DNA of 64,000 nt, taken from the NCBI GenBank assembly GCA_034401795.1, contig CM067370.1, forward strand, positions 58,325,295-58,389,294, read 5' to 3'. This DNA comes from Chaetoderma sp. LZ-2023a (Eukaryota > Mollusca > Caudofoveata > Chaetodermatida > Chaetodermatidae). Positions 1,993 through 57,498 of the stretch are shown here, one piece after another. Made by a program: the position numbers and the translations under genes. Each line of letters starts with the position of its first letter. Within the stretch, counting starts at the first letter, position 1. The notes beneath the pieces were generated by a model. It ran no database searches. It saw nothing but the letters and a program-made list of their open reading frames with translations, and had not been told where the DNA came from.

Positions 1993-2948
1993 CGTGACAC
2001 TCCAATATATAAAGCAAAAGACTCGTCCAACTTCACAAATTACAGGCCTGTCTCAATACTTCCACTTTTCTCTAAATTAATGGAGTGATTAATGTATAAT
2101 AGATTAATCAATTATCTAGCAAAAAGGACATTTTATACGCTTCACAGTGTGGATTCCGCCAGAAACACTCAACAATGCTCACGCTAGTTGAAATGACAGA
2201 AAAAATGGAATCAACTGAAAAGAAAGAACATATACTGGGCATCTTCTTGGACTTTTCAAAAGCTTTTGATACCATCAATCACAATATATTATTAGGAAAT
2301 CTTGCCTATTACAGAATCCGAGGATGTGCACTTGCCTGGTTTCAGAGGTATTTAACTGATAGAACACAATGCGTGCTATTTAATGCAACCTGCTCTGAAA
2401 ACAGCAAATTAACCTGTGGTGTTCCTCAGGGGTCAATTATTGGCCCTCTGCTGTTTTTACTCTATATGAATGACTTGCCCAAAATTTGTCACAATTTGTC
2501 ACTAATACGGTTTGCCGATGACACCAATGCCTTTTGCTCCGCCAAAAACTTAGATATATCATACGAAAGTGTAAATAAAGAAATGGAAGAAGTTATTAAC
2601 TGGTTCAAAGTAAACAAGCTATCATTAAATGTTGATAAAACAAACTACATGCTATTTTCAAAGTCTAGACAATCAAGAAACAATAGTATTCCAAAAATCT
2701 ATATTAATAAAAAAGAAATTAAAGAAGCTCCTTTTGCTAAATCCTTAGGAGTTTATTTAGACAAGAACCTGACCTGGGGCAAACAAATTGTGGTAGTCAC
2801 CGCTAAAGTAGCAAGAGGCATGGGGGTCATTCAAAGACTAAAGCCATACCTAACACAAGCTACCATTAAAACCCTGTATTCCACACTGATCCTTCCACAC
2901 TTCACATACTGCAATGCCATCTGGATTAGTACAAAAAACCCAAATTAA
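1993..2948 (+). pseudogene. LINE reverse transcriptase domain
   Basis: Copies element RNA into DNA at a nicked target. The fragment starts with the fingers region (NYRPVSILPLFSKLME just before a TGA), shifts frame, and then runs open for 257 codons from 2175. In that block LDFSKAFD lies at residues 25-32, GVPQGS at 82-87 and the catalytic FADD at 113-116. The later motif KSLGVYLDKNLTWG and the thumb motif TLYSTLILPHFTYCN are present. The apurinic endonuclease and ORF1 are missing upstream. A related C-terminus lies on the minus strand at the end of the window. The family is clear; the clade (CR1, L2 or Jockey-like) is inferred from motifs only. Confidence 0.9.
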
Positions 2949-17481: not shown

Positions 17482-18195
17482 CTATTTATTACTGTTTATA
17501 ATTATGAGTTTTGTGGTCCTGTGATGGTGTAGTGAGTAGAAGTATTGTCGCACTGACATTTCTAGTTTATGATGGCAGTTGCAGCTTGGTTTGTTAGACA
17601 TATATGTAGAAGGATCGAGCAGGAATGATGTTAGGATGCGGTTGTTGGTCCAGATGCTGTGGGTGTTGGTGTTGCACGTGGTACATAGGCTAGAGTGGAT
17701 CAAATTGAGGTATTTCATGCGGATTTCAGCTAGAGCAGTGCAGGCAGTCAGAAAGTGCTGGAGGTCCTCGGGTTCACCATTACATAGTAGGCAGGTTGCA
17801 TTAACAGTGTAGTGGCTAAACTTAGCTGTGTTCAGCTGAAGAATGTAACATCCTGTCAGTAGCCGTAGTCGTACTGCAAGTAGGCATATATCGTAAGGTG
17901 AAGTAGTAACAGAGTCAACTGCTGGATGTGCAGAGCAGAAATTAATTGGATAGTGCTGAACATGCTCCAACGAGGGATACAGCTGCAGTTGTGAGTTGAG
18001 ATTCGCAGACCATTGTGTGTGTATGTTGGTTCTGATAGTGGTCTTCCAGTCACATTTTCCTGGTGGGCTGTCCATGAGTTCATAGATGGATGGCAGCTCA
18101 TACCTTGCCAATATCCTGCGTATGTCTGCAAACCAGCTCTCCTGGTCAAAGCCTCTCATAACACTTTGTCTTACAGCTACTTCGAATAGAAGCAT
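17482..18195 (-). pseudogene. LINE C-terminal region with zinc-knuckle-like motif
   Basis: Open for 237 codons. Cys135, Cys138, His147 and Cys152 form a C-x2-C-x8-H-x4-C motif (CLLCNGEPEDLQHFLTAC), usual near the C-terminus of many LINE ORF2 proteins, where it is thought to help RNA or DNA binding. A His/Thr-rich tail follows. It is the best preserved part of this element. Confidence 0.8.
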
Positions 18196-18198
18196 TTC

Positions 18199-19225
18199 CT
18201 AGTTTCCGCAGATATCTCTGGTCATGATGAGCCTCAACATATGTATACGAGCCTCAGCTGGTAAGATGCTGAATAGGATATAAGGTGATGGGTACGCAGT
18301 CCTGCCTGGATGGCCTAATATTTGAAGTAGTAGTTTGTGGTAGAATTTGTCTAGCAGATTAATTTCTGTCTTGTTAAGGATGAGAATGTCCAAACCGTGG
18401 AGTAGTACAGGAAGGACATATATCTCAATCAGGTGCATACTGGCATTTGGTGTTATCCCATTGATGCCGTGGAGTCCCTTGCCCATGAGAAAGTAAGCTG
18501 CTCATCTTGCCTTTTTTATGTTTTCATTGATGGTGGGCCGTGCACTAGTAATCTGATCACTCCTTTGGATTCCCAGGTGGGGAGCACAGCCTGGTGCTGA
18601 TACCAGGTCTCCATTTAGAGTAAATGCTGGCTTCTCCTGTTTACAGTTTGATAGGATGGCACATTTCGCAGGCTGCAGTTCGTAGAACTCATAGGTGCTA
18701 TAATAGCATAATGTGTCTATCAGGTGTTGTAGCTGATATTCACTGTTTGTGATTAGGCTGACATCGTCAGCACAGGTCGGCGCTGCCGAGTGTACAGTCC
18801 CAATATAGGCACCATTACCAGTAGCCTCTAGGCAGTTGAGCAGATTGTTGATGTACAGTTTGTACAGGTCTGTTGATAATATGCTCCCTTGCCTGACACC
18901 TTGCCTGAACGGAATCTGAGCACTCACCATGCCATTTCACTGTGGTGGTAGCATTTTTGTGAAGGTCTGTGATGAGGGTCCAAGTGGCTCCCTATATCCC
19001 AGCAAGATACAGTTTACACACAAGGATTGTGTGGTTTACTACATCGAAGGCTGACTTGTCATCAAGGAGAGCAACGTATGTATTAAGGTTCTTGATTCGC
19101 GATTCAGAGGTAGCTTCCTGGAGCATCAGTGCGCTGTACATTAGCAATAACCCGGATGTAAATCCAAACTGAAGAGGGTGTTGTGTTTTAAGTACTGTCT
19201 GTTGGATGCACACTTTCAGAAGCAT
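18199..19225 (-). pseudogene. LINE reverse transcriptase palm and thumb
   Basis: Read from 19225 down, LLDDKSAFDVVNH holds the first catalytic Asp region. After a frame break, FRQGVRQGSILS (the primer-grip side) and CADDVSLI with the catalytic ADD follow in a 142-codon frame (18930-18502). Then comes the thumb frame 18486-18199 with LPVLLHGLDIL. Typical RT order is preserved despite three frame breaks. Confidence 0.8.
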
Positions 19226-21811: not shown

Positions 21812-21817
21812 CACACA

Positions 21818-21885
<68 letters not shown>

Positions 21886-21892
21886 CACACAC
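21812..21892. repeat. (ACGC)n then (AC)n microsatellite
   Basis: About 13 tetranucleotide repeats followed by about 10 CA units. The open frames crossing it encode HARTHART runs and are artefacts. Confidence 0.97.
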
Positions 21893-21910: not shown

Positions 21911-22690
21911 ATGGCTGCCATGTTTGGTAAAGTTCTCCAGCAGATTGTCTATAGGCAGCAGGACAAGTCGGCACGATGCGGAGATACTGGCCGCCATAGA
22001 GGAAGGAGCGCCAGCTCATAATACAAAAGAACTCCTAGGCTCGGATACTCTGCCGGAAGTTTGACAGCACCCAGGGCAGGGAACTCAACCTACCTGTGGC
22101 CCAAACCAACAGTCCTGTTATTCTAGCTCTCCAAAGGGCGAGGGTCGATCCCAAAGATCTACTAACGGTCGGGAAGTGGGCTGCCCTATTTAACCTCCAT
22201 AGCCAAGAAGAGCGAGAGATGCTGGATAGCCTCGTCTGGTGCAAATAACTACTTCAGGGAGGAGGTCAGTGCTGCTGTAGCAGAAAGCCACAACACAGGT
22301 CATGCAGAAGGTACTCAGGAGGGGTTCACTGTTGGCCGCAAGGAGGCTATTGAGCACATCTTCAAGGAAAGAGGGTGCAGGAGATTGGCCAGTAATCTGC
22401 CAGCATTTCTGAAATTCCCAGATAACTACCAGAACTACCTCATCAGATTCACTCGCAAGCACGATGCTAGTCGCTCATGGAAAAAGTGGGTCTTCCATGA
22501 GAAGTTCCAGAAGAAGAGAGTCCTAGACTCTGACCCTCAGTGGAAAGAGTTTCAGCAACAGGCTTCTGACGAAGTTCCTCAAGCTTCTGACGAAGTTCCT
22601 CAAGCTTCTGATGAAGTTCCTCAAGCATCTGACGAAGTAGCAGAGACCGTGGAGGAAGTAGCGGAGACCACGCAGCCTTCTGATGAATGA
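21911..22690 (+). pseudogene. Hypothetical module protein with C-terminal heptad-like repeats
   Basis: Unknown function. The frame opens at ATG 21911 (MAAMFGKVLQQIV), shifts twice before 22070, runs open to TAA at 22246, and overlaps another frame that continues to 22690. I treat it as one broken gene, or two overlapping ones. The C-terminal part is Lys/Arg-rich and helical (residues such as FTRKHDASRSWKKWVF). It ends in four copies of a seven-residue QASDEVP repeat (22559-22642) and an acidic tail. A basic body with a repetitive acidic tail would suit a DNA-binding or scaffolding protein; this is inference only. It converges on the ATPase gene with a 23-bp gap. Confidence 0.5.
22559..22642. 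repeat. Four 21-bp tandem coding repeats
   Basis: Units close to CAAGCTTCTGACGAAGTTCCT, each encoding QASDEVP. All indels are multiples of three, and two substitutions are silent, which suggests past selection on the frame. Confidence 0.85.
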
Positions 22691-22713
22691 AAAAAGTTGC
22701 GGCCGACAGTCTG

Positions 22714-23376
22714 TCAGCGATGACGCGTAGAGCAGGCTAGTTTCCTGGCTGGATTCAGCTTATAGGTAAAGGTCTGCGCCTTTTCCAGAGATGGCTTGAA
22801 GTGTGACAGCTCACCTGTCTCCTTGTTGCTGAAGATGAAGCGGTACAGCTCAGCTGCCCTTTGTACACCTGCGATAAAGTCCCCTTTGGTCTCCTCGAGG
22901 GTTAGGCTGTTGTATATGGTCTCGAGCAGGGCACGTCCACACTTGGAGCTGAAGTATAGCAACCGGGCATTGTGGCGGATGTCCGGTGAGATCTCGCGGG
23001 TGTACTTCTGAAAGAGGATGAAGACAGTTATCTTTGTGTTCCGGATGTGCCTGGTGATGTTGCTGAGGTAGGTGACTGTCTTCTGGTCCATTGCAGGGAC
23101 ATCGATAACTAGAACAAGTGGTTCTGTCAGTCGGGCTGCCAGCAGCTTCTCCATCAGTGCTTGCAGGTTCTGCATCTTGGTGATTGGGCCATTGTACCAT
23201 TGATCATTACTGTCAACCGCCTCAGTGGCGGAGTCAGACACCATAAGGATGTATTGAGAGTGTAGATGTTTGGCCAGGGGAGCCCGCAGCAAGATGTTTT
23301 TCCCGTGTCCTGACGGGGCAATGATCAGCACCACCTGGCCAGCATCGGCCGGCCTACCGTCGAATGGTACAGACAT
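22714..23376 (-). CDS. Packaging ATPase (FtsK/HerA-like, A32 type)
   Basis: Probable motor that pumps DNA into a preformed capsid. Intact frame of 220 codons. A P-loop lies at residues 20-27 (APSGHGKN), followed by a helix. A hydrophobic strand ending in Asp at 87-92 (LVLVID) fits Walker B. A later segment TRHIRNTKITVFILFQ (108-123), with a Gln after a strand, resembles the sensor region of Polinton/A32-type ATPases. The P-loop ends in Asn where Ser or Thr is usual, so activity is doubtful. At about 220 residues the length fits the family. Its start overlaps the end of the preceding gene by 23 bp, suggesting coexpression. Other P-loop NTPases cannot be fully excluded. Confidence 0.65.
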   Translation of the reverse strand: MSVPFDGRPADAGQVVLIIAPSGHGKNILLRAPLAKHLHSQYILMVSDSATEAVDSNDQWYNGPITKMQNLQALMEKLLAARLTEPLVLVIDVPAMDQKTVTYLSNITRHIRNTKITVFILFQKYTREISPDIRHNARLLYFSSKCGRALLETIYNSLTLEETKGDFIAGVQRAAELYRFIFSNKETGELSHFKPSLEKAQTFTYKLNPARKLACSTRHR

Positions 23377-23632
23377 GCGTGCGGAGGATGGTTAGCACTT
23401 GGTCGACGGTAGCCTCGTCTATATCTGGGAGACTAAACGGCAGTACTTCCTGCACCAGCTCTTTCGCATGCAGAGCGGGGAATCCTGCACCTCCGGCGGA
23501 TATGAAGGATGCGATGGAGGCGTCAAGCATGACATCCCAGCAGCAGCTGAGACGATAGCGTAGAGGGCCAGTGTCATCACCCACAGTGTCTAGTACATCC
23601 AGTATCTGTATGATACATGCACGGGAAGCCAT
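23354..23632 (-). CDS. Small hypothetical protein upstream of the ATPase
   Basis: Intact 92-codon frame. It overlaps the ATPase start by 23 bp and begins 2 bp after the stop of the 168-residue gene upstream, as in a compact viral gene row. It is Cys-containing near residue 30 (LSCCWDV), with amphipathic helices after it and no known domain. No function proposed. Confidence 0.6.
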   Translation of the reverse strand: MASRACIIQILDVLDTVGDDTGPLRYRLSCCWDVMLDASIASFISAGGAGFPALHAKELVQEVLPFSLPDIDEATVDQVLTILRTHVCTIRR

Positions 23633-23634
23633 GC

Positions 23635-24141
23635 CTATCCTGTAGTCTTAAACGGCAAAGCAAAGAACCCTGACTTCTTCACCTCTGGTAGCTGGAGGCT
23701 GGCGGTAGCACCTGTTTTGCTGTCGACAGTGATATGGCTCAGGCCGAGGGTGCCTACCATGAGATGCTCTCCATCCTGTTGGAATGAGCTCCGTGGTTTC
23801 AGGAGATCCTTAACCAGGTCTTGTGCATAGGACTCAGACATAACCTTGATGGCACCAGCCTCATCGACTCCGAGCATACCGAGCATCGTTGCCCTGTCCT
23901 TGATGCCCATCCCCTTGTATACAGTCTTGGCCTTGTTAATGGCCGATTGTCCTACCATATCAGTGTTCCCAATGAGATCTTGGGCTGGGATGGTACCTTG
24001 GATCTCCTGCGGGTCTCCCTTCTCATCGAAGTCTAGGAAGGAGATAGGGGCAACAGTATCCTCTGAACCGAGGCATGCCTCGCCCAAGATCGCAAGATCG
24101 CCTAGCTCTTTGCTTTCTAGGTCTGTGAATGACTGAGTCAT
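23635..24141 (-). CDS. Hypothetical module protein, 168 residues
   Basis: Intact frame starting with ATG at 24141. It has an acidic N-terminus, a central helical Ala/Met/Gly-rich region (about 75-115), then a beta-rich C-terminal half with many Thr and Ser, ending with FFALPFKTTG. No recognised domain. It is the best preserved of the hypothetical genes and lies between the small 74-residue frame and the 92-residue gene in the same row. A minor virion or core protein is possible but unproven. Confidence 0.6.
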   Translation of the reverse strand: MTQSFTDLESKELGDLAILGEACLGSEDTVAPISFLDFDEKGDPQEIQGTIPAQDLIGNTDMVGQSAINKAKTVYKGMGIKDRATMLGMLGVDEAGAIKVMSESYAQDLVKDLLKPRSSFQQDGEHLMVGTLGLSHITVDSKTGATASLQLPEVKKSGFFALPFKTTG

Positions 24142-24167
24142 AGTGCTATATACATGGCTTAAACCTA

Positions 24168-24392
24168 CTAGTCATACCCCCAGTGTAATAGTTGGGCATA
24201 GGAGGACCAAGCAGTCAGCCAAGGGAATAGGTAGCAGTGCTCAGGGTGCTGGCCCTCTCTGCAGGGACATGCCTTGTGGGCGGTCCACCATTCCCAGGCA
24301 TTGGCGATCCTCAGTTCGCGTGCTCGACTATGAGCTACACACCGCCCTCTGGCACGCCATGCCTCATATGCTGCAGGGGTCTCATGATCCAT
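24168..24392 (-). CDS. Possible small Trp/Cys-rich protein
   Basis: 74-codon frame with ATG at 24392, 20 bp after the stop of the preceding gene and 27 bp before the next start, so it fills the row. It is rich in Trp, Arg and Ala with a CPC motif near residue 44. Opposite-strand frames of similar length exist here, so the coding assignment rests mainly on spacing. Confidence 0.4.
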   Translation of the reverse strand: MDHETPAAYEAWRARGRCVAHSRARELRIANAWEWWTAHKACPCREGQHPEHCYLFPWLTAWSSYAQLLHWGYD

Positions 24393-24411
24393 CTCTCACT
24401 ATTCAGAGGGG

Positions 24412-24916
24412 TTAAACGTAGGCGACGATGATCGTTGCTAGCCCTAGACCCGCGGCCTCCATTAGTGTAACACGTTCACCCATGATCTTGGCGGCAACGG
24501 TGTAGGAGGCACCACTGAGGGCGATCTTTGGGATGTGGCGAGTTATTCCAAGACAGTGCCCAGCCACCCCACTCACCACTGTAGCGAGGGCAGCCACAGT
24601 GGTGGCAGGAAGAACCTCATTCCCCCCTGTCATCTTCACCACGGCCACATTCGCCGCAACATTACTGACGACATGGACTGCCAGAGGTTTTGCTTTGGTC
24701 AGTAACTTCTGTGTCTTGGTTCGCAGCAGGTTCTCCACCTTCTGAAGACTTGCCTAGCTCTCGGGCAGTTGCTTCACGATCTGTACAGTTGACGTCATTG
24801 TTTAAGCCCTGAGTATACAATGCTGTTAAATGTCTGCGTCCCCTGTCGAGAGAGCTAATAAGATCTTCCCAGTCTGCATCTGCCAGGTGGCCGGGTTGGT
24901 ACTCAGGAATATTCAT
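24412..24916 (-). pseudogene. Hypothetical membrane protein, frameshifted
   Basis: It starts at ATG 24916 with an acidic N-terminal half (MNIPEYQPGHLADADW). A frameshift near 24745 separates this from a second frame (24738-24412) that has no ATG of its own and an in-frame stop just upstream, so both belong to one gene of about 168 residues. The second part has a basic stretch (KTQKLLTKAK), then two hydrophobic segments rich in Ala, Val and Gly that could cross a membrane. A role in a virion membrane or capsid interior is inference. It is divergent from the plus-strand gene at 24940 with only 23 bp between the starts. Confidence 0.5.
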
Positions 24917-24939
24917 CTCTCTATTGAGACATCTTAAAC
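24917..24939. promoter_or_regulatory. Divergent start-to-start gap
   Basis: Only 23 bp separate two divergent starts, so any promoters must overlap the coding ends. No TATA box is seen. Confidence 0.35.
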
Positions 24940-25425
24940 ATGTCCGGGCTCACGCTATGCGAGAAGTACTATGAGGTCTTCTGGAAGGAGTTGAAGGACT
25001 ACAAGAAGAAGACCCCAGATTAGCTCACTCAGCTCTCCAGTGCTGAGCTGACAGCTGTGAAGCTCTATCTAGGATTTGGTAAGGGGCAGATCTGCTTCCT
25101 CGAATACCTTATCATGGGCGGGAGTATCGTCGAGCAGCTCCTGCGAGCTAAAGGTTTCTACAAGGATCGGGAGTATCTGTCAGATGTGTTCCAGCAGTTG
25201 CAGACCTCCATGGCCTCACCTAACTCAGAGATGAACAAGGCTCTGCGATACTACAAGCTGGAAAAAGGATGCGCTGTGGAACCATCCAGCCCTTGGATGT
25301 GCATGTTGGCAGCGTGAATAGGGGCTGTAGGGCAGGCCAAGCTGGTTCAGTGTCTCACCGTGGTCCCCACTGCTACTGTAGAGAGTCAGGATAGTCTTAT
25401 AGCTGATTTGCTAGCAGCGGAGTAG
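24940..25425 (+). pseudogene. Hypothetical module protein, two in-frame stops
   Basis: One frame of 162 codons from ATG 24940 to TAG 25423, interrupted only by TAG at 25021 and TGA at 25315. The product is Tyr/Lys/Leu-rich and mainly helical (CEKYYEVFWKELKDYKKK near the start), with no known domain. Its 3' end overlaps the 3' end of the convergent capsid-like gene by about 15 bp. That the frame survives past both stops suggests nonsense mutations rather than frameshifts. Confidence 0.55.
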
Positions 25426-26644
25426 GCTGATCCCGAGCACCATGATAGCTAGGCCTGACAACACTCATACAGCTACCATGGGAAGCGGTGTCGTGTCAAC
25501 TGGCTGCAGTGTCAGGGTCGGAATGACTGCATGGCCTGTACTATGCGTTGATGTGTTGATATCAGTGTTGAAGCCGAAGTGGACACCAGGGGAACTCCCC
25601 TCGACTATCATGTTGTTATAGCCCCTGACTTGGAGGTCCTTGATGTTCACGATCATGTTGCTCGGAATCAACCGCAGGTGTGGTGAAATAGCAACGTCAA
25701 GTTTGCGACGGGCCTTCTGCAACCCCTGCTGGAACTTAGCAATAAGACTGCTGGGTTCTGCCACGATGATCATATCTTCAACGAGCCTGATGAACATGGC
25801 CTGGACCTCTGCTCCGCTGACACCATCTATGGAATGACGCAGCTTGGTCTGTGCTGTAAGGAGGCAGTAGCACAGTGCTTCCAGCGACTGGTTGATCCGA
25901 ACGATCCCTGCCGGTGTGAGGCCTGAGGTGATGTGTGGGACAAAGTACTTCCACACATCTGGTGATGTGCATATTTTGCACCAGCGCTCCAGGGTCGGAG
26001 TCTGGATTGAACGAGAATGTCGCTGTCTTCCGGCGGCCTACTCGTCGGGGTGTTCGAAAGGGGAATCCTGAGTAGTCACGTCTCGGGTCACCATACATAA
26101 CCCCCAGGCCACTGTTGTTACCACCATGCCACCGATAGTCTGGGTGAGCGCTGAACTCTCTCTGTAGTTTGCTGGCCGCTGAGACGCTCTGACTGTTGAG
26201 CTGTGGGTCGAAGTCGTTTGTATCAGGGAGGCTTGGACCCAGCTCATGAAGGATTCATCGCACTGTGAAGTACACGTGGAATCTGAGACAGCTGGCAATG
26301 AGCACAGCTTCAGGAGTATCAGAATAGGAGTGAAGCAGGGTGGAACTTACTCAACATCCTGCCGTGGCACACCACACGGCAAAGTTCAGCTGCTGATTCC
26401 AGTATGAGAGGCTTGGAGCAGCCAACCAAGTATGAGCTCGCTTCGCATCCTTGATGGTGATTGGGCGGTTGGTCAGCGGTCGTGGGTTGACGGAGAAGCT
26501 GGTTCGGGACCATCCATCCACTGTGATGGAGAACGGTGTTAGCTCTGGTATATCATCCAGCAGACCTCTCTGGCAAGTCAAGGGTGTACCCAGGAGGGGT
26601 GGTTGGCTCTGGATAACTGTCGTGAGGTTAAGTGGGAAGGCCAT
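25411..26644 (-). pseudogene. Capsid-like virion protein with C-terminal membrane segment (candidate)
   Basis: About 410 codons from ATG 26644. Lesions: TGA at about 26351, a second TGA near 26255, a frameshift near 26000 and TGA at 25465, after which the same frame continues to 25411. The middle is rich in aromatic and beta-forming residues (LSYWNQQLNFAVWCATAGC, FHVYFTVR). The following part has conserved-looking helices (AGIVRINQSLEALCYCLL). The last 20 residues are a hydrophobic anchor (VLSGLAIMVLGISLL). Size, position next to the membrane-hairpin gene and presence of an ATPase suggest a major or minor capsid component. I cannot confirm a jelly-roll fold by eye. It could also be an unrelated structural protein. 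Confidence 0.5.
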
Positions 26645-26683
26645 CTATACTGGTGTTCTTAAAGCTAGCGTACAGACAGCACA

Positions 26684-27919
26684 CTATTTGTAGTCATCTC
26701 CACTGCAGAGACCGACGAGGTGACCTCGCCGTAACATCTCGTTTTTTAGCTCCTCTTTATCAACCTGCCCACTCGAGCCTTTGAGGTATTGCTGTCGCAC
26801 TTTAGGTTTCTCTGTGTGGTACATGGCTTGGACCTTCAATATATGGTGGTACTCTTCATCGGTGACCTGGCCATCCTCGAAAGCTTTGCTGACAGACTCG
26901 TCGATAGTCCGTAGCATACTCTGTGCCAGTGTCACGTACTTAGCATGCTTCTCCAGCCTCCTTGTGATCTGCCGCTGCCCCACCCCCAAGCCCGTGACCA
27001 AGACAGTGGCGGCTAGTGTCACGCCACCCAGCGGGATGGCGACGAGGGCACCCACCCCTGTAGTGAGAGTGGCCACAGCTGCCACACCAGCACTGGCTCC
27101 AATCACACCTGCAGCAATGGTTGTACGCGTGAGGACGTTGTATGCCATCTTATATCGCCTGCCCGTTCTGCTGTACTTTTCTGCCTCGCGGACGAGATTC
27201 TGCCTGATGGTATCTATCTGCTGGAGTCGCCAGCCGTGGATGGTACCGCCCTCGTCAGCAGTCAGGGAGGGGTATAGTTCTGGTTGCTTCCGCCACTCAG
27301 ATTCTGCCATAGTATATCTGGAGGCGTAAACAGGCATCACCTGCAGAATCTGCTCATGAGTCATAGAAGGGTTCATTTTGGAGAGCCTGGCGAACCATAC
27401 CAGCTTGCAGGTGTTGAGACAGACGTCTCTTAGACAGCGGTCATCCAGCACTATGACGGGTGCCAGTAGCTTTCTGAGACATGACATCTGGAACTTCACC
27501 TTATTACCATGATAGTAGGTCCGCCGCTGGATGGCTTTCTTGGTCTTACACTTCTATGCCATCTTCTCTTCCCACTGTATGACCTCTTGCTCATCCTCGT
27601 CTGAGAGGACACCTGGCTCATCCTCGTCTGTGAAGACATCTGGCTCATCGTCATATGTGAAGACATCTGGCTCATCACCATCTGTCAAGACTCCTGCATC
27701 CCGCTTACTCTTCTTCAGGAGGTCCTGCCAGTATTTGGAAGCTTCACTGTTCCTTTGCCTACTTGCAATGCTCACGGTCTGTTGACACCAGCTCTCCCGC
27801 TGTTGTCACTCTCCTTCTTGTTGCAGTGTGAGCATCTGTTCGTTTTGTGCAGGGGTCATGAAGGGGCAACCCTCTTTCATCATCTCGGCAAAGGTCAGAT
27901 AATGCTGGTATGATATCAT
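26684..27919 (-). pseudogene. Module protein with large hydrophobic hairpin
   Basis: One frame of 411 codons from ATG 27919 to 26684 with only two stops (TGA at 27808-27806 and TAG at 27556-27554). The first 140 residues include an acidic repeated motif (DEPDVFT and variants, three to four copies). Later comes a basic Lys/Arg/Tyr stretch, then about 45 Ala/Gly/Val/Thr residues (about 266-312) forming a likely helical hairpin in a membrane, followed by charged helices (HAKYVTLAQSMLRTIDESV). I recognise this layout as recurring in mobile-element-linked invertebrate proteins but cannot name a family. Its ATG overlaps the stop of the preceding gene (ATGA). Confidence 0.6.
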
Positions 27920-28299
27920 GTTGTCATCAGGTCAATGAGTAATAAGAGTGTAAACTCTAAATGGGCATCCGATATCCCATCCGTGCTGGCATATATGTTA
28001 ATGGAGGGGCTGTCAAACAGGTGATTTACAGCTGTGAACAGGCTAAGACTGATAGCTTTCCATAGGTTGCTGTTGGCACGTGGGAGATACTCTATCACGT
28101 CCAGGCTGACTTCTACCAGTGAGCTGCTGTGTGCACTGCCCGGAGGTTGATGTATCACATCGGCATGTATGTATGTTGTGCCCTACTGGGGCACCTCGAA
28201 GAGGACCCATTCTACACGGTACTGTTCTGCCCGTCTCCCCTCTAGAGAGGGTGAGATTACGTTCTCACCACCGGAGAGCAGCAGTCGGACAATCAGCAT
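27916..28299 (-). pseudogene. Small beta-rich module protein (possible minor capsid)
   Basis: 128-codon frame from ATG 28299 with one stop (TAG at 28185-28183). Alternating hydrophobic residues (MLIVRLLLSGG, YRVEWVLFEVPQ) and a C-terminal helix-strand region (LEFTLLLLIDLM) suggest a compact beta-rich fold of single-jelly-roll size. This is only a structural guess. Its stop overlaps the next start by 4 bp, so the two genes were probably cotranscribed. Its start faces the plus-strand gene at 28338 across 38 bp. Confidence 0.5.
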
Positions 28300-28337
28300 G
28301 GTTATATGTTTTGTTTAAACCCCTCCAATAGTGTGCT
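28300..28337. promoter_or_regulatory. Divergent start-to-start gap
   Basis: 38 bp between divergent starts; TTTTGTTTAAACCC is the only notable motif. It is a likely shared promoter by position only. Confidence 0.35.
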
Positions 28338-29192
28338 ATGGAACCCATATTTGCTCACTCGACTGGTCTTGCTGACCTGGCAGATGTGTATGCAGTTGAT
28401 GCTGCCAAGGTAGAAGAGAGCGATGGTAAGTCATTCGCCCTACAGTATGAAGCAAGCTCAAAGGCATTCTCCCTCCACCCCATTGGTGGTGATGGGGTGG
28501 AGCTGCTCACAGACCTCAAGGATGTGATGAAGGGGCATCTTGGTCGCAACATAGATGGCCACAAGATCGTGTTTCGGTACGATTTCCCGAAGAGGAAGTA
28601 CATCCTCGAGCCGTTGATTGAGCTCTCGGATACAGAGGTGGCAGACATCAACACCCTAAATAGAGACCTCAGCTTTCATCTGGTCAAACCATATTCGAAC
28701 GGTGCCCCGCTGATGGCCCATGATGGCCTGCTATTTACCCTGGCAAAAAACCTGCAGTTCATATTTTAGAAGAATGAAGTGTGGTACCGTGCTGGACCTG
28801 GGGGTGACTGGCAAACATGGTTGTCCCTATATAGGCCTCCCACAGTCATTGACATAGAGGTTACTCCCCTCTCCACTGTTGTGAAAAAGGATGGGACAGT
28901 TCGAAAGCTCTACAATCGGGGATCATCCTTCCTCACATACATAGGTGAAGGTGTCTCCCTGACGAGGGTGGGTCACCAGATCGGGGTTACAGGTAGAAGG
29001 CTCCTGCTGCGTCGTCCATTCAATGGACCAGAAGAAGCTGTTAACCTCCAGGAGGGCATCCTATGGGTAGATTGTGTGTCACATGTCACCAGAGCCAAGG
29101 ATGCTGTTAAACTGCTTCAGCGAGTCGGACTCACTAGCCCGCAAATGACTCATATAATCCTAGAGCTACGTTTCTTAGCCAAGGCAAAGTGA
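28338..29192 (+). pseudogene. Hypothetical module protein, one in-frame stop
   Basis: 285-codon frame from ATG 28338 to TGA 29190 with a single TAG at 28767. The N-terminal part has mixed alpha/beta character (KIVFRYDFPKRKYILEPL). The C-terminal part includes PPTVIDIEVTPLSTVVKK and a helical end (AKDAVKLLQRVGLTSPQ). No domain is recognised. It starts the plus-strand row that continues with two tiny genes. A virion or assembly role is inferred from location only. Confidence 0.55.
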
Positions 29193-29218
29193 AGCGGCTA
29201 GCCCCTGCCCATGAGGGG

Positions 29219-29320
29219 ATGAAGATCACTATCGAACCGGATGGAGCAGGGCTTGATCTGGCACAGATATTTCTCGAGGGGTTCACTCTGTTCAGTTTAG
29301 CTCTTCATATATGGCCATGA
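29219..29320 (+). CDS. Tiny ORF (33 residues)
   Basis: ATG at 29219, TGA at 29318. It has a hydrophobic C-terminal half (IFLEGFTLFSLALHIW) that could span a membrane and overlaps the next start by 10 bp. Such small membrane peptides are frequent in compact viral rows, but the length makes coding uncertain. Confidence 0.35.
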   Translation: MKITIEPDGAGLDLAQIFLEGFTLFSLALHIWP

Positions 29321-29679
29321 TTCTCATCATACTGCTCGTGCTGGTGTTTACAGCAGTGGCACAGGGCACTGAGACTGCCATGATATTAGATGCCAAGTGG
29401 GCCCACTTTCTGGATGCCCCCCTCCCCCAGTACAATCCTTGGGTCGACCCCTTGCGGAGAAACATTTACGACGGCTTTCACCCACGTGAAGAGATCGAGT
29501 CTGTCTGCCACTTCTATGGTGTGGAGAGGGTAGGACGTGGTTGTCTGCTGGAGACACCTGCTCAGCACCAGATTCTCTGCATAACATGTGAACATGCCAG
29601 AGTCTGCCGTGGCACAAATGCTAAGCACTTTAGCATCCTGCCAGGTGAGCGTTGTCAAGGTAGATGGAAGCAAATTTAG
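29311..29679 (+). CDS. Secreted or membrane protein with six cysteines
   Basis: 122 codons, intact. Residues 1-19 (MAMILIILLVLVFTAVAQG) form a signal peptide or anchor. The ectodomain has six Cys (66, 78, 90, 93, 99, 115), enough for three disulfides, and no recognised family. As the last gene before the right terminal repeat and with an intact frame, it may be an accessory or envelope-type product. A non-viral cargo gene is also possible. Confidence 0.5.
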   Translation: MAMILIILLVLVFTAVAQGTETAMILDAKWAHFLDAPLPQYNPWVDPLRRNIYDGFHPREEIESVCHFYGVERVGRGCLLETPAQHQILCITCEHARVCRGTNAKHFSILPGERCQGRWKQI

Positions 29680-29833
29680 ATTATACAATCAATGTTATAT
29701 ATTATGATATATCGTTAAAAAAATAATTATAAAACCAGATTTTTAAACCTACACGGTTGTACGGTTGTCAAATTATGTCACCGGTTTTCGAACTGTCATG
29801 CTTAAAAATCTGGAGACTGTTCAAAATCTGGAT

Positions 29834-35739: not shown

Positions 35740-36350
35740 CACCTCGGTGCCCATTCTTACAACCCGGCTCAATGGCAGCCTCTGAACGACAATGTCAGGT
35801 GGCCAACACTACTACTCATTCTCCTACAAAATCATGCATACACACGCATCCAGCTTCTTATATGTCGGTACCAACGATGCACACTGCATCCGCAACACTG
35901 ACATCTCCCCCCCCCCCTCCCCCGGAAATTGTGACCCCCCACAATTTCACTATCTACCAAACCTTCTTTTCTATGTAAAACGGCAGTGGTAGGTTGTAGC
36001 ACCTCCACTGAAACAACGTTTATACAAGCAGCATGACCCACCGCCAAGGCACTTAACACCCAGTCTCCCTTGGTGGTTTGCAATTCACAAGTTCACAAGT
36101 CCTTACAGCATCACCCACTACATCTAGCAGCAACAGTGTTTCGGATGGAAGTACACATTCAGCATCATGGACCCGCAAGAAGGAGCACCGCACTAAGGAC
36201 GGAAAAATGCCACACCATGATTCCTTCTTCTGTGCATCAACTAAACATCCCATGATGCATTGTCAAAAGTGGCTCACACAGGTAGCCCTCATCCATGATC
36301 GTTACAATCCTGTCCGCACGTCTGTTTACACCAACTAAAAATACACAGAA
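35740..36350. other. Region between nucleocapsid and protease
   Basis: Thr/His/Pro-rich frames in several registers without motifs. It is probably a decayed gag-pol linker. Confidence 0.45.
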
Positions 36351-37252
36351 ATGGCATCAACACCACCACCATCACCACTGCTACCCCTAGCTCCGTCATC
36401 GCCTAAGCAATCACAGCAGCAGCGACGATGGGTTGGCCCTTTCTTCACTCAGCCACAAACTGCACTCACGGAAGATATCCAGAAACAGACCGACTACATA
36501 CAGGATGATACTGCACCAAAAACACTCCCACAGATGGTATCATTGGAAACTCTTCTGCAGGCACACTGTAAAGTGATATATAAGTGTGCTTGTCTGTTTA
36601 GCGGTATTTCTACTAGTGCCACTTTTGACACTGGTGCTTCCATCACTGTTTTCAACAAGCGCTTTTATGAGAGCATCCCACCTCATAAAAAGCCACCCCT
36701 TAAACCTACAAATATATTTTTGCAAACAGCTACAGGAGCCGATGTTCCCGTGGCTGGTACAGTAAACCTCGTAATACAGATAGAGGAGATGCAAATCATC
36801 CAGTGAGTTGTTATCGCCTCTATTAAAAAGATGCTCTGTTTGGCTCTGATTTCCTCAGTCCCAGCGAAGCCATCATACATTGCAGACAACAGGAACTAGA
36901 CATACACAGCCGACGTATACCCCTTGGATCGGAGTTATCGCTGTACGACACATGTGCAGTGATTTTAGCCTCAACAGCCACAGTTGAGCCGGGACAGGAG
37001 AAAATCTTATGGGCCACCGAACCACAGTTAGGAAACAACACCCACATAGCCATGCTGGAACCCGACCATAAATATATAATCGCCTCTCAATGCGACAATC
37101 CCCGAATGATTGTGGACATCACCAACAAGGATCACATACCATTTAGAGTATTCAATGGCATGACGGACCCAATAACTCTTGAACCGGGAGTTCGTTGTGG
37201 CCATCTGGTGGATGTGATATCCTACTACACTTCCACCAGCAACATCTTCTGA
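36351..37252 (+). pseudogene. Gypsy aspartic protease and linker
   Basis: Cleaves the gag-pol polyprotein. The first frame (151 codons) has a Pro/Gln-rich start and the catalytic DTGAS at residues 93-97, followed by FLQTATG and VAGTVNLVI strands. A stop at 36804 ends it. A second frame continues with LFGSDFLSPSEAIIHC (the protease C-terminal part), then a linker to about 37252 (EPGQEKILWATEP). Confidence 0.8.
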
Positions 37253-37256
37253 TGAT

Positions 37257-37654
37257 GTGCCAGAACATCTACATGACATATATCTGCGTGCCACAGTTGG
37301 ATTGATGCACTCCCTAAAAAAAGACATACAGAAACTACTATACAAATATTGCAATAGTTTCTCAGCTGGAGACATGGACTTTGGGGAAACTCATCTCGTG
37401 CAACACTCCATTGACATTGGAAACAACCAACCTGTTCGACAACCCATTCGACATCTTCCCATTCACAAGGAGGTGGAAGCACACCAACAAGTAAACGGAC
37501 AGGCATATTAGAGCCATCAGCATTCGCCTGGGCCAGTCCCATTGTACTAGCAGGCAAAAAGGACAGATCTTTGCGGTTTTGTATAGACTACCACCGCCTT
37601 AATGATCTTAGCATCAATGACGCTTTTCCATTACCACGAATACCCGAGATGGAT
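37257..37654 (+). pseudogene. Gypsy reverse transcriptase, N-terminal part
   Basis: The frame from about 37257 includes ETHLVQHSIDIGNNQPVRQP, the usual RT entry. A frameshift near 37500 leads into PSAFAWASPIVLAGKKD and LRFCIDYHRLNDLSINDAFP, then PLPRIPEMD, where an inserted repeat begins. Confidence 0.88.
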
Positions 37655-38582
37655 AGGCTCCTCAAAGGATGTCCGTAACAGGCGGCAGTGGGCTTGCAAG
37701 AGTCCGGGGGCACGTGAAATCGGTAATATGGTGCAGAGGAGATACTGAAGGCCTCCGTGTCTAACGAAGGATGAATTGACATCCTACTGTGGTAATCGGC
37801 GTATTGTTTGGGTTACTGAGATTGTTGGTTCATCCTATCTCAGCAAGTGGACATGCATGGTACGTGGATGACTAGCCACACCCTGGACATAAAAATGTCT
37901 CTAGATTTTTAAGCGTCCTTGCTAGATGATAGTCCTGCAGGCAAGGCCGGGGAAAATGGTCAAAGTTTGCATGCTGTTGGCAGATAGATACAGATCAGAC
38001 CGTCGGTTGCCCCTTGGCGTGAGCTCAGATGGTAATCGCTATCGACTGGGTCGCCAGACAGTCATCTTGATCATGTCAGTTCATCTGTGTGATCAAGATG
38101 GCTCAACGTACAGTCAGGCAAGCGTCCATATTGCAAGTCATGCCTCCCATGATCAGAGAACATGAAAAGTGGTTCTTTGGGAAGCAGGAGGGCATATGTG
38201 TGAGAGGGCGTGACCTGTAACGTGCTGAACTGGATACAGTGTTCAGTCATGATCCCAGTACGCGGAAAGGTGGATGACCTCGTTGAACGATCTATGCCAG
38301 GCTACAGCCTTTCGCTATAATGACGTCTTGTAGGCATCACCTTCATAGTACGGTCTATGCCAGGCTTCGAGCACCTCGCCAAGATGGCCATTGATGGGTA
38401 TCCATTACTGTACCTGCTCATTCGGAAGTCAACAAGTTTATTATCCCATGGGCCCTGGTCGTCAATCTGAGTCATATATATGGAAAGGTACCCAGCCCAG
38501 GCTGCATCCTGTGTAGACTACTAGGTGGTCGTGCTGCGGCCACAATTGGAAATACACCAGGAAGGCCAAAGGGTACAAGTGA
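37655..38582 (+). repeat. Unnamed 0.9-kb insertion element, copy 1
   Basis: Starts AGGCTCCTCAAAGGATG and ends near GCCAAAGGGTACAAGTGA. Removing it and one GAT rejoins the RT reading frame in phase, which supports a 3-bp target duplication (GAT at 37652-37654 and 38583-38585). It has no terminal inverted repeats, poly(A) or LTR. Two related copies lie at 40217 and 50191. It contains an open frame of about 79 codons (37926-38165) with no known motif. Confidence 0.75.
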
Positions 38583-39260
38583 GATCAGGCCTTAGATTCC
38601 TTGTCCAGAGCGAAGTGGTTTGGTAACCGTGATTTAGCTAGTGGGTACTGGCAGGTAGCCATGGATGAGGCTGACAGGGAGAAGACCGCGTTTGTATGTA
38701 GAGACAGTCTTTTCCAGTTCCGCAAGATGCCCTAGGGCTTGTGCAATGCTCCTGGAATGTTCGAGCATCTCATTGAACAGGTATTAACTATCCTGCAATG
38801 GGAAATCTGTCTGTGTTACATCGACGACATTATCGTCTTTGGTTCCACATTTGAGCAAACTTTGTCCAAACTGGACAAAGTACTTATGCGTTTTCATATT
38901 TAAAGCTCAAACCAAAGAAATGCCATCTTTTCAGAAAGACTGTCAAGTTCCTGTGACACGCTATATCCGACGATGGAGTGGCTACTCAGACATCAAAAAC
39001 AAAGGCAGTAGCAGAGTGGCAGACCCCCCACGTCAGTCACGGATACCTGGAGTTTCCTTGGTCTTTGCCAGTACTATCATTGTTATATCCATCACTTTAG
39101 TGCGATTGCATCACCCTTATTCAGGATCACCGAGAAAGGTCGACCATCGAGTGGACGAGTGAGTGTAAAGGTTCCTTCAGGGCGCTGAAGAAGCTCATGA
39201 TGACCGCCCCAATTCTTGCTCATCCTAACCCTAACCTCGATTTCATCTTAGACACTGATC
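38583..39260 (+). pseudogene. Gypsy reverse transcriptase, catalytic part
   Basis: Resumes with LDSLSRAKWF and DLASGYWQVAMDEADREKTA. A TAG near 38735 precedes GLCNAP. The catalytic YIDDIIVFG is intact near 38818. Frames then break repeatedly toward RNase H (SFLGLCQYY and HHFSAIASPLFRITEKGRPS are visible in other registers). Confidence 0.88.
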
Positions 39261-39575
39261 TCAGGTCACAGAAGATGGAATGGAGCAGGCACTGGGTTAT
39301 GGTTCGCGTATTCTGAATAAAACGGAGAAACGTTATGCGACCACAAAGAGAGAATTGTTAGCTGCAGTCCTTTTCGTCAAGTATTACAAACACTTTCTGT
39401 ATGGGCGCCCATTTACCCTCCATACAGATCATGCCTCACTACGCTGGCTCAGAAACCTAAAAAATCCAGAGGGCCAGGTAGCGAGGTGGCAGGAATAACT
39501 GCAGGCCTTCAACTTAAATGTTGTTCATAGACCCGGCAAACTGCATGGAAATGCTGATGCCTTGAGCATAATCGG
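39261..39575 (+). pseudogene. Gypsy RNase H
   Basis: Degrades the RNA strand of the hybrid. YGSRILNKTEKRYATTKREL holds the catalytic Glu and TLHTDHASLRWL a catalytic Asp. It ends with VVHRPGKLHGNADALS after a TAA near 39496. Confidence 0.85.
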
Positions 39576-39839
39576 GCTCATGGATGAACAAGAAGTGGCC
39601 ACCACCGTGACACATACTACACAGCCATCTCCTGTGTTCCCCGAATTGCGGTGCGCAGAGTGGAACACGGAGACTGTCGCTCACTAACAAGCAACAGACA
39701 TGCAAACACAGAACATATACATGTGGATCCAGGAGGGGGTACGTCCTCCTAAGGAATCTTTTACACCACTTTCCACAATGGCAAAATACTACTATTAGCG
39801 GTTTAGAGAATGCCACATACAAAACAACATTCTCTACAT

Positions 39840-40216
39840 TAATAACTGGATAGTGATCCCGGAGCGCTATCATGAGACTATTTTACAACAACTACACGAT
39901 AGCGCTGGACACCTAGCCATCCAGCAAACCACCACTTGGATAAAACAGCGATTCCACTGGATCGGGATATGCGATAGTGTGAAGGCATGGTTCGCCAAAT
40001 GTGTCCCATGTCAAAGAGGCACTGTTGGCCATCACCATTCCGCACCTCTACAAGTTAAGATTGTTGGTGCACCATGGGAGCGAGTGGCTCGGATGCTTGA
40101 ATACAACAGATGGAGGAAACAAGTACATCCTCGTATTACAAGATTATTTTACGAAGTGGGTGGAAGCATTTGCTTTGCCAGACCAAGAGGCATCCACAGT
40201 AGTGACCGAGAGGGAT
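39840..40216 (+). pseudogene. Gypsy integrase, zinc domain and start of core
   Basis: The H-x4-H (HDSAGH) and C-x2-C (CVPC) zinc-binding pairs are intact. Frames overlap after APWERVA; GGNKYILVLQDYFTKWVEAF and LPDQEASTVVTE follow in another frame. The first catalytic Asp region is damaged. A second copy of the insertion element interrupts the core. Confidence 0.88.
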
Positions 40217-41002
40217 AGGCTCCTCGAGGGGATTGCTACAGCAGGCGGCAGTGGGCTCGCGAGAGTCCGAGCACACATAAAAATTGTGGTATAGTGCAGA
40301 GGAGACATTGAAGACATCTGTGTCTAATGAAGGATGACTTAACAGCCTACTGTGGTACCGTCTAGTTGGCATATTGTTCGGGCTACTGAGATTTTTGGTT
40401 CATCCTGTCTCAGTAAGTGGACATGCGTGGTATGTGGCGACAAACCTCACCCAGGGCAAACTAGACTCTGCAGATCTCGTCTGGTCTGCTAGAGGGGCCC
40501 TGCAGGCAAGGCCGGGAAAAATGGTCAAAGGATGCATTCTTTTGCCAAAAAGGTGCAGATCAGACCGTCGGTTGCCCCTGGGCGTGAGCTCACATGGTGA
40601 TCGCTATCGACTGGGTCGCCAGCCGGTTGTCTTGATCATGTCAGTTCATCTGTGTAATCAAGATGGCTCAATGTACAGTCAGGCCATAGTAAGCATTCAT
40701 ATTGCGAGCCATGCCTCCCGTGAGCAGAGGTCATGAAAAGTGATTCTTTGGGAAGCGGGAGGGTATATGCGTTAGATGGGCATCACATGAGGGGATCATG
40801 GACTATGTTCTTCAATCCTGTTTTCATAGGCATTGTTCTCGATCTCATGTTAGACTAGTGTCCCCTGGACCATGTTCCTTAATCATGTTTCTTCAGAGCC
40901 GACTGATCTCCGAGCCCTGACAGGGCATGGTCCTCAATCTCATACGCATATGCAGGAAAGGCACCTAGCCTAGGCTGCATCCTGGTAGACTACTAGGTGG
41001 TC
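40217..41002 (+). repeat. Unnamed insertion element, copy 2
   Basis: Same left end as copy 1 (AGGCTCCTCGAGG after GAGAGGGAT). The right end is shorter, stopping at CTACTAGGTGGTCC. The integrase coding sequence resumes about 45 codons later than expected, so a deletion removed the right end of the insert together with host integrase sequence. Confidence 0.75.
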
Positions 41003-41890
41003 CATACCATGGTGGAGAGATTCAATAGAACTCTCGCAGAGATGTTGACAAAGGAAACACGCCTTGATTGTCGAGATTGGGATCTACGACTCCCATATGT
41101 GCTCATGGCATGCCACACTTTGACACATTCCAGCATGGGTTATACCCCTGCTTGGTTAATGTTAGGCCATGAATTAGCCTTACCCCTGGATCTGGCCATG
41201 CCCAGGATCCCAGGAGAGATAAGTTCACCATCTCTCTACATAGAGCTCATGCGGCAGCTGATAGAACAGACCCATGGGCTAGTGAGAGCAACTTTATCAA
41301 CTGCACACCAGCGTCATAAAACGTGGCATGACCGGCGAGTGCATGGAGATCCGTATGAGGCAGGAAAAATGGTTTGGGTTGATGATTCGCGATGTTCTGC
41401 AAACATACCAAGTAAACTGAGTTACCAATGGAAAGCCCCCTATGTGGTAGTAGGTAAGTCAGACATGACCTACTGCATCCACGCCTTGGATGGCCTGACG
41501 TCAGTCATCCACTTTGATCGACTTAAGCCTTGTGTCAGTGATGACCCAGTAACAGAGCTCGGACTGGGCATTCCACGTGGCACCGGCACCCAGACAGATG
41601 TCTCTACGGAGACAAGTATTCCCGACATTAGTCTAGAGCATCGCAGTGCCAGTTCGACCCCTTTCCTACCAAGCCAGGAGTCCGGTGAACATACGACTAA
41701 TGCTGAGGACGATGATGAGATACGTACTCGCCATCTCTCTCCTCAGTGCAGGTCTACAAGATCTGGGAAGTCGTATCTGAAGACTTTCTCGTTTGTGCTG
41801 TCCAAGGGGAAGGACGGAAAAGTTGTTCCGCCGACCTCTTCCCATTCCCACCCACTTCATGCTATTATGCCAATTATAGAGTTACCATAA
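40997..41890 (+). pseudogene. Gypsy integrase, C-terminal part
   Basis: Open for 297 codons. MVERFNRTLAEML carries the last catalytic Glu region. YVLMACHTLTHSSMGYTPAW follows, then the GPY/F-like module (LSYQWKAPYVVVGKSD) and VIHFDRLKPC. The tail of about 100 residues is acidic and Ser/Thr-rich. No chromodomain is evident. Confidence 0.88.
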
Positions 41891-41929
41891 GCGGAAGCTG
41901 AGGCTGCCCCGGGCCAAGCTTCTTGTGGA

Positions 41930-42322
41930 GTGGAACATGTAATAAATAGCATGGAAGTGAAGAGGCTTGATGAGGCCGTGGCTCGTTTTGAAGAACAGCA
42001 AAACTGCACAACTTGGTATACCTCTCCACCACCGCAAATCGCGAGACCAATCATATTCCAAGGTGCATCCCATCCATTGGCACCACCACCCCCACTGCAA
42101 CTCGCGTCCCTCATCTATGCACCAAGTTCAGACATTATCGGCCCTGTCCATTTCACATCGTCTGTTGACTGTCCATCTTCAGATATGAGAGAGTCCGCTG
42201 TTACAGCGGAGGTGGCATCCTGCACCACAGTACCCCTCCCCCACCCCATCCCCCACAACGCTGGTGGTGGGCAGGGAAGCAGCTTGTTCAGCACTCTCAG
42301 CTCGATTATTCCCTGTACTTAA
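41930..42322 (+). CDS. Possible extra ORF of the Gypsy element
   Basis: 131 codons, Pro/Ser/Thr-rich with no domain. It starts 40 bp after integrase, so it may be a remnant of a third ORF. No transmembrane segment or cleavage site supports an envelope. Confidence 0.3.
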   Translation: MEHVINSMEVKRLDEAVARFEEQQNCTTWYTSPPPQIARPIIFQGASHPLAPPPPLQLASLIYAPSSDIIGPVHFTSSVDCPSSDMRESAVTAEVASCTTVPLPHPIPHNAGGGQGSSLFSTLSSIIPCT

Positions 42323-49540: not shown

Positions 49541-49546
49541 TCTGAC

Positions 49547-57114: not shown

Positions 57115-57498
57115 CTAATATTTGATTGCTTTAATGAAGCAGTCTAATTGTGTATCTGCTCCCGGTGCGGGTGTAATGTTTGATTTTGGCAAAAACCTTT
57201 TTTTGCGCATGTTTTCCAGTTTGGTGGCTTGCGTATCATGGGAGGAGTTGACGGGTGATGGAGGGGGTGGGTTGCTCTGGGTGATGCCCGTGTCTTGGGC
57301 GAGTGTGCCCAATAGGGTGGGGTGCGGTGGGTAGGGGTTAGCGGTGAAATGGAGAGTGAGGCGCAGCCTTCTGAAAAACGTGCTCACGTCTTTGTATAGG
57401 ATACCCATATCCGGCTCATAAACTGTTGGGCAGAAGCCAAGACCCTTGTCGAGTGCTTCAATAGTATTTTTGTCAAAATTTTTATTAGACAGATTCAC
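57115..57498 (-). pseudogene. Penelope-like element N-terminal region
   Basis: 127-codon frame. NLSNKNFDKNTIEALDKGLG then FCPTVYEPD and FFRRLRLTLHF are the hallmark region ahead of Penelope RTs. A Pro-rich stretch follows (NPYPPHPTLLG). The frame ends at 57115; the RT continues in other registers. Confidence 0.8.

What the first reader, a model, noticed from the sequence alone, without database searches (positions are those of the whole stretch)
21911..29679. Virus-like morphogenesis gene module without polymerase or integrase
About 13 intron-less genes in 7.8 kb, on both strands, with 2-40 bp gaps or 4-23 bp overlaps, sit in a genome of otherwise sparse retroelement debris. One is an A32/FtsK-like packaging ATPase. 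Neighbours include a capsid-like protein with a C-terminal anchor, a hydrophobic-hairpin protein, a small beta-rich protein and a six-Cys secreted protein. Polintons and adintovirus-like elements carry an ATPase and capsid genes but also PolB and integrase, neither of which is visible. It could be a deleted Polinton-like element or a separate capsid-encoding mobile lineage.
Basis: partly seen in the sequence, partly recalled or inferred. Interest (0 to 1): 0.92.

Follow-up and report, generated by a model that had tools for sequence, protein, structure and literature searches.

The report
Fossil virion-gene block with viral promoters
A decayed block of about 13 tightly packed genes from an unknown DNA virus sits in a eukaryotic, probably animal, genome; it includes a viral DNA-packaging motor, and many of its genes start just after the same unusual two-part signal, suggesting they were once switched on by a viral rather than a host machine.

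Summary
The block is real: 13 genes cover 97% of 21911-29679, with far more long ORFs than shuffles give. One gene is a packaging ATPase. Its relatives match Pox_A32 (6 of 7 scanned, best 2.6e-08), and a model of one resembles giant-virus A32, FtsK and STIV2 B204 motors. No polymerase, integrase, protease or terminal repeat was found beside it. The copy is dead: 7 of 13 genes are broken, and its ATPase lacks a Walker B acid that all 11 relatives found have.

The new result is a bipartite start-site signal, GTTTAA-N9-ATA: seven copies in 8 kb (shuffle mean 0.01), all seven followed by an ATG within 12 nt, and one copy in the other 56 kb. It is the commonest gapped 6+3 pattern of the block. Its layout resembles poxvirus intermediate and mimivirus late promoters and sits too near most ATGs for a host TATA box. 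I read it as the late-gene block of a small polinton-like or virophage-like virus transcribed by a viral RNA polymerase. A capsid was not shown; host and intact copies were not reached.

The parts
21911..22690 (+). g1: 260 codons with a C-terminal acidic 7-aa repeat; broken (stops and apparent frame changes). GTTTAA-N9-ATG overlaps its start (degenerate signal, seen by eye).
   Evidence: Frames; 3 internal stops in the start frame; tandem repeat 22562-22659.
22714..23376 (-). g2: A32/FtsK-type packaging ATPase, 220 aa, open frame, second Walker B acid replaced.
   Evidence: GTTTAG signal 62 nt before the ATG.
23354..23632 (-). g3: 92 aa, open frame, strict GTTTAA-N9-ATA signal; overlaps g2 by 23 bp.
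23635..24141 (-). g4: 168 aa, open frame, strict signal; no relative found.
24168..24392 (-). g5: 74 aa, open frame, strict signal.
24412..24916 (-). g6: about 168 codons, two hydrophobic stretches in its second part, broken by a frame change, strict signal.
24940..25317 (+). g7: 126 codons, one in-frame stop; no signal close to its start (a strict site lies at +24800).
25411..26644 (-). g8: about 411-codon candidate capsid/membrane protein with a C-terminal hydrophobic tail; broken by stops and a frame change; relaxed signal (spacer 10).
   Evidence: fold of one piece uninformative.
26684..27919 (-). g9: 412 codons, acidic repeat followed by a Gly/Ala/Val-rich hydrophobic hairpin; two in-frame stops; 4-bp overlap with g10.
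   Evidence: no homologue at E<=1 for its longest piece.
27916..28299 (-). g10: 128 codons, one in-frame stop, strict signal; divergent from g11.
28338..28769 (+). g11: 143 aa, open frame, strict signal.
28774..29320 (+). g12: about 182 codons, broken by frame changes, starts 4 nt after g11.
   Evidence: frames; ends (one search scored it from 28775 to 29317).
29311..29679 (+). g13: 122 aa, open frame, signal peptide-like start and six cysteines, relaxed signal (GTTTAG).
23636..23653 (-). Start-site signal of g3 (GTTTAA-N9-ATA)
24147..24164 (-). Start-site signal of g4
24400..24417 (-). Start-site signal of g5
24922..24939 (-). Start-site signal of g6
28303..28320 (-). Start-site signal of g10
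28313..28330 (+). Start-site signal of g11 (overlaps that of g10)
24800..24817 (+). Orphan strict signal inside g6, upstream of g7
   Evidence: its first ATG opens only 12 codons.

Best explanation
This is a dead, integrated copy of the virion-building (late) gene block of a eukaryotic DNA virus of the A32-ATPase kind. In life, single genes or pairs of genes were transcribed from a two-part promoter, GTTTAA, a 9-bp spacer and ATA(G), whose first box begins 16-25 nt before the start codon. That would give mRNAs with leaders of about ten bases or fewer. A multisubunit RNA polymerase of viral origin (poxvirus- or mimivirus-like), not host Pol II, most likely read these promoters; no gene for one was recognised in the block. 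The ATPase would pump the genome into a shell built by the neighbouring proteins; g8 is the candidate shell or membrane protein, and g6, g9 and g13 are membrane-associated or secreted. The most likely lifestyle is that of a small polinton-like or virophage-like virus that borrowed transcription, and perhaps replication, from a larger helper virus, and whose integrated copy then decayed. Shown: gene block, ATPase family, decay, signal. Inferred: promoter function, viral polymerase, capsid role, helper dependence.
Confidence: 0.5

Rival explanations
1. A truncated Polinton, adintovirus or other meldvirus whose PolB and integrase ends were lost; its genes were read by host Pol II and the signal is a peculiarity of that lineage.
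For: Polintons and adintovirus-type elements carry an FtsK/A32-type ATPase and occur in animal genomes (PMC4028283; PMC8097293; PMC11071296). 2,166 vertebrate Maverick copies lacked discernible TIRs, so losing ends is common. Meldviruses lacking PolB and integrase are described.
Against: No PolB, protease, TIR or integrase piece in the block or the flanks scanned. In eight genes the signal begins 16-25 nt before the ATG, which leaves no room for a TATA box plus 25-30 nt. 'Promoter' gave no motif in the three Polinton/PLV papers searched for it.
Confidence: 0.25
2. An 8-kb fragment of a large nucleocytoplasmic-type virus integrated in the host genome; the viral RNA polymerase genes lay elsewhere in the same virus.
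For: Best structural matches of the ATPase are giant-virus proteins; the signal resembles large-virus late or intermediate promoters.
Against: Both ends of the gene array coincide with the GC change at about 21.8 and 29.6 kb, which suggests a compact unit. No other large-virus gene was recognised among 145 ORFs of 80 aa or more in the 64-kb window. The model is of moderate quality, so rank order says little on kinship.
Confidence: 0.17
3. Domesticated virion genes kept by the host, as in endogenous virus-like-particle producers.
For: Whole morphogenesis-type block without replication genes.
Against: 7 of 13 genes are broken and the ATPase has lost a Walker B acid present in all 11 relatives found.
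Confidence: 0.03
4. Bacterial or phage contamination in the assembly.
For: Intron-less, compact genes.
Against: No relative in two scans of bacterial and archaeal genome contigs (ATPase, g9) or in eight IMG/VR scans; no PHROGs match below E 0.02 for ten ORFs; CpG depletion as in the flanks; decay; retroelement domains in the window, on both sides by eye.
Confidence: 0.02

Closest known systems
Polinton-like viruses (PLVs)
   Same: Small eukaryotic viruses with a packaging ATPase, mostly without pPolB, RVE integrase and protease (PMC7805220, PMC11071308 passages).
   Different: All PLVs of PMC7805220 carry MCP and mCP genes; neither could be recognised here. No replication gene was found here. 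'Promoter' does not occur in the two PLV papers searched.
Virophages (mavirus/EMALEs, Loki's Castle virophages)
   Same: Compact viruses; EMALEs are integrated; genes preceded by a repeated promoter motif matching or ascribed to the helper (PMC8547959, PMC6401483 passages).
   Different: Different motif (TCTA with AT-rich flanks for mavirus); no recognisable virophage capsid or protease here; helper unknown.
Polintons/Mavericks and adintoviruses
   Same: Elements of animal genomes with an FtsK/A32-type packaging ATPase and genes on both strands.
   Different: PolB, RVE integrase, protease and TIRs not found here.
Meldviruses lacking PolB and integrase (Buck et al. 2024 preprint)
   Same: Virion gene sets without recognisable PolB or integrase, from animal datasets (PMC11071296: Results parts 1 and 2 of 3, and figure legends, seen).
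   Different: Those unite adenovirus-class virion proteins with such genomes; here only the ATPase is recognisable.
Poxvirus intermediate and Megamimivirinae late promoters
   Same: Two short boxes about one helical turn apart near the gene start (passages).
   Different: Sequences differ (AT-rich core plus TAAA; T[AC]T-N9-[AG]TA[TG]A) and are AT-rich; here GTTTAA-N9-ATA in 52% GC DNA.

Membership tests
A32/FtsK-HerA packaging ATPase family | Sequence match to Pox_A32 and FtsK/HerA-type fold | tested here: met
   Pox_A32 in 6 of 7 members at E<=0.01, best 2.6e-08. P0001 alone is below the curated cut-off (18.4 against 22.8 bits) and the window copy has no hit. Fold; plain Foldseek on the PDB ranked aminotransferases first at TMq 0.38.
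Polinton/Maverick or adintovirus | Protein-primed PolB | tested here: not met
   No PolB family among 145 ORFs of 80 aa or more in the window or 149 of 154 ORFs of 40 aa or more in 21.6-33.5 kb. A lost end cannot be excluded.
Polinton/Maverick or adintovirus | RVE integrase of the element | tested here: not met
   No integrase domain in 21.6-33.5 kb, so the integrase domains lie elsewhere in the window.
Polinton/Maverick or adintovirus | Terminal inverted repeats at the ends | tested here: not met
   No inverted pair of 16 nt or more bounding 21.9-29.7 kb within 18-34 kb.
Polinton/Maverick or adintovirus | Adenovirus-like protease | tested here: not met
   No protease family.
Polinton-like virus | Packaging ATPase | tested here: met
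Polinton-like virus | Double jelly-roll MCP and single jelly-roll mCP | tested here: inconclusive
   No sequence match; the fold of a g8 piece was too poor to use.
Polinton-like virus | Mostly no pPolB, RVE or protease | tested here: met
Virophage | Promoters shared with a helper giant virus | not testable with these tools
   A repeated promoter-like signal exists, but no helper sequence is at hand.
Nucleocytoviricota | Several hallmark genes besides A32 | tested here: inconclusive
   Only the ATPase recognised; a fragment cannot be excluded.

The most novel reading that the evidence does not exclude
A satellite (virophage-type) virus of an unknown large DNA virus infecting animals: it carried only virion genes, most under the helper's bipartite late promoter GTTTAA-N9-ATA, and lodged in the animal germline, where it could be switched on when the helper's RNA polymerase appeared. 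It would be an animal counterpart of mavirus in Cafeteria, and its promoters would name the helper.
Probability: 0.2. Interest if true: 0.92.

Novelty: new variant of a known kind. Interest (0 to 1): 0.62.

Why it matters
If the promoter reading holds, a virus fossil in what looks like an animal genome carries the start signal of a viral RNA polymerase with no recognised gene for that polymerase beside it. That points to helper dependence, which is known for protist virophages; none of the 12 listed titles and abstract beginnings (51 papers matched, none opened) describes it for animals. The signal also gives a handle that needs no protein similarity: a search for GTTTAA-N9-ATA placed just before ATGs could find intact relatives and the helper in animal assemblies, even though only the ATPase is recognisable by sequence.

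Tried and rejected
Host and copy number: the genome search on the window's own assembly was unreachable 11 times, so full-length copies and linkage to PolB or integrase were not tested, and the host was not identified.

Relatives of the other genes: only the ATPase and the longest piece of g9 (nothing at E<=1) were put to the large protein set. IMG/VR scans with the ATPase, g9 (21), g8 pieces (22, 39), g4 (83), g12 (84) and g11 (85) gave none, nor did bacterial and archaeal genome contigs with the ATPase (38) and g9 (96). These scans need short exact peptides, so distant relatives are not excluded; g1, g3, g5, g6, g7, g10 and g13 were not scanned.

Fold of the g8 piece: pLDDT 34, discarded. 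Foldseek of the ATPase against the PDB put aminotransferases first (TMq 0.38) and is treated as noise of a moderate model; the realignment of the same list put FtsK/HerA-type motors first.

Second copy or paralogues in the window: none at the thresholds used. PDB sequence searches for g8 and g9 pieces: nothing below 0.8. ATPase profile against PDB sequences: P-loop proteins at weak E and spurious hits.

Control against the signal: in eight other, partly overlapping 7.8-kb stretches of the window, unmasked, the commonest gapped word (simplest words left out) reached 36, 9, 6, 4, 4, 7, 4 and 15 copies. I read the four counts of 7 or more as repeats but could tie only the first to a tandem array. 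In this block the copies share nothing outside the two boxes. Among first-ATG ORFs of 90 aa or more, only 4 of 14 have the relaxed signal within 40 nt; that set was not filtered for spurious antisense ORFs.

Literature searches. No paper listed there was seen to report GTTTAA-N9-ATA; only listings and the passages or sections cited were seen. The family label FtsK-HerA, Walker B, and the view of virophages and PLVs as mainly protist viruses are recalled.

Corrected on checking: the ends of g8 and g12 used were slightly off; one search gives the right ones (gap 93 bp, overlap 10 bp).
Full report
What was checked. Reading the frames gives 13 genes, here g1-g13, each with an ATG and a stop, which cover 96.6% of the interval. 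Neighbours are 2-39 bp apart or overlap by 4, 10 or 23 bp, with one wider gap of 93 bp between g7 and g8 (which corrects two ends used). The block holds 17 stop-to-stop frames of at least 100 aa against a shuffle mean of 7.2 (maximum 14), and 7 of at least 150 aa against 0.75 (maximum 3), in 200 dinucleotide shuffles. GC is 0.522 against 0.376 to the left and 0.435 to the right; it rises near 21.8 kb and falls near 29.6 kb.

State of the copy. Six genes keep an open frame (g2, g3, g4, g5, g11, g13). Seven are broken: g7, g9 and g10 by in-frame stops, g6 and g12 by frame changes, g1 and g8 by both (frame changes judged by eye). The ATPase frame is open, but its second Walker B acidic residue (position 93) is Val, while all 11 relatives found have Asp there. 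CpG observed/expected is 0.53, against 0.59 and 0.71 in the flanks. This is an old, dead integrated copy. The window otherwise holds retroelement debris: RVT_1, gag and integrase domains. By eye these look animal; the host was not identified.

What is absent. No PolB, integrase, protease, helicase or primase domain was found in 149 of the 154 frames of 40 aa or more between 21.6 and 33.5 kb (E<=0.01), nor in 145 frames of 80 aa or more in the whole window apart from retroelement and PHD-finger domains (E<=0.001). No terminal inverted repeats bound the block. Nine further ORFs or pieces of the block have no Pfam or PHROGs match of note. Two proteins have paired hydrophobic stretches (g6, g9), g13 has a signal-like N-terminus with six cysteines, and g8 ends in a hydrophobic tail.

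The start-site signal. While listing TTAAAC words I noticed a constant second box. Tested formally, GTTTAA-N9-ATA occurs 7 times in 21.8-29.8 kb; 500 shuffles give a mean of 0.01 and a maximum of 1. All 7 are followed by an ATG within 12 nt. The other 56 kb hold one copy, without such an ATG. The spacing is sharp: with GTTTA[AG] as the first box, 7 pairs fall at 9 and at most 2 at any other distance from 0 to 29. To reduce the bias of having noticed it, all 6-mer/gap/3-mer patterns with gaps of 0-20 were counted, two tandem repeats masked: this is the single commonest one in the block, 7 against a best of 4-5 in each of 40 shuffles. Four of eight other stretches of the window reach such counts too, which I put down to repeats; here the spacers and flanks differ between copies, so it is not a repeat. 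Strict sites precede g3, g4, g5, g6, g10 and g11; relaxed sites precede g8 and g13, and one lies 62 nt before g2. g9 starts inside g10's end and g12 4 nt after g11. g1 has GTTTAA-N9-ATG at its start (by eye). g7 has none nearby, and one strict site (+24800) opens only 12 codons.

How it most likely worked. The first box begins 16-25 nt before the ATG in the eight genes with a strict or relaxed signal there. A host Pol II TATA box would start transcripts 25-30 nt downstream (stated for Drosophila in PMC1550435, passages), at or beyond the start codon. The layout fits viral RNA polymerases instead: vaccinia intermediate promoters have a core, a spacer of about one helical turn and a TAAA initiator (PMC12917281, passages); the Megamimivirinae late consensus is T[AC]T-N4-W5-[AG]TA[TG]A, also 9 nt between boxes (PMC11464507, passage). 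In the window the RTA part is met by 7 of 7 strict sites, the next [TG] by 5 of 7 and the final A by 2 of 7; the first box reads TAA where the consensus has T[AC]T; the AT-rich setting is not met. Since no RNA polymerase gene was recognised in the block, the enzyme must have come from elsewhere in the same virus or from a helper. Virophages carry promoters that match, or are thought to match, the helper's (PMC8547959, PMC6401483 passages). I therefore favour a small PLV- or virophage-like virus, with a truncated Polinton/meldvirus and a fragment of a larger virus as serious rivals.

Comparison. PLVs mostly lack PolB and RVE (PMC11071308, PMC7805220 passages), and animal-associated meldviruses lacking both are described (PMC11071296, Results parts 1 and 2 of 3 read). 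So a packaging module without these genes is a known kind. Membership in Polintons proper fails on PolB, integrase, protease and TIRs as tested in this decayed copy; membership in PLVs is inconclusive for want of the capsid genes. What seems new is the promoter system and the lack of recognisable proteins beside the ATPase.

Limits. The window's own genome could not be searched. Of the 13 proteins only the ATPase and g9 were put to the large protein set. All statements on transcription are inferences from sequence.

Noticed in passing
2103-2948 (+) and 17482-18936 (-): LINE-type reverse transcriptase (RVT_1, 1.7e-27) and, by eye, a further LINE-like fragment to the left of the block.
   Followed up: partly
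36339-42319 (+): LTR-retroelement-like frames, including an aspartic-protease-like stretch and an integrase-like frame at 40997-41890; identified by eye, domains tallied without positions.
   Followed up: partly
21812-21890: CACG/CA microsatellite directly abutting the left end of the gene block.
   Followed up: no
29732-29815: A short inverted repeat just past the right end of the block, seen by eye; possibly a small non-autonomous transposon.
   Followed up: no
24800-24817 (+): A strict GTTTAA-N9-ATA site inside g6 on the other strand whose first ATG opens only 12 codons; it might belong to g7, about 120 nt downstream.
   Followed up: partly
49415-50272 (+): Unassigned 285-aa frame with a cysteine-rich start.
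   Followed up: no
57115-57675 (-): Unassigned 186-aa frame.
   Followed up: no
45251: The only strict GTTTAA-N9-ATA site in the window outside the block, with no ATG within 12 nt.
   Followed up: no
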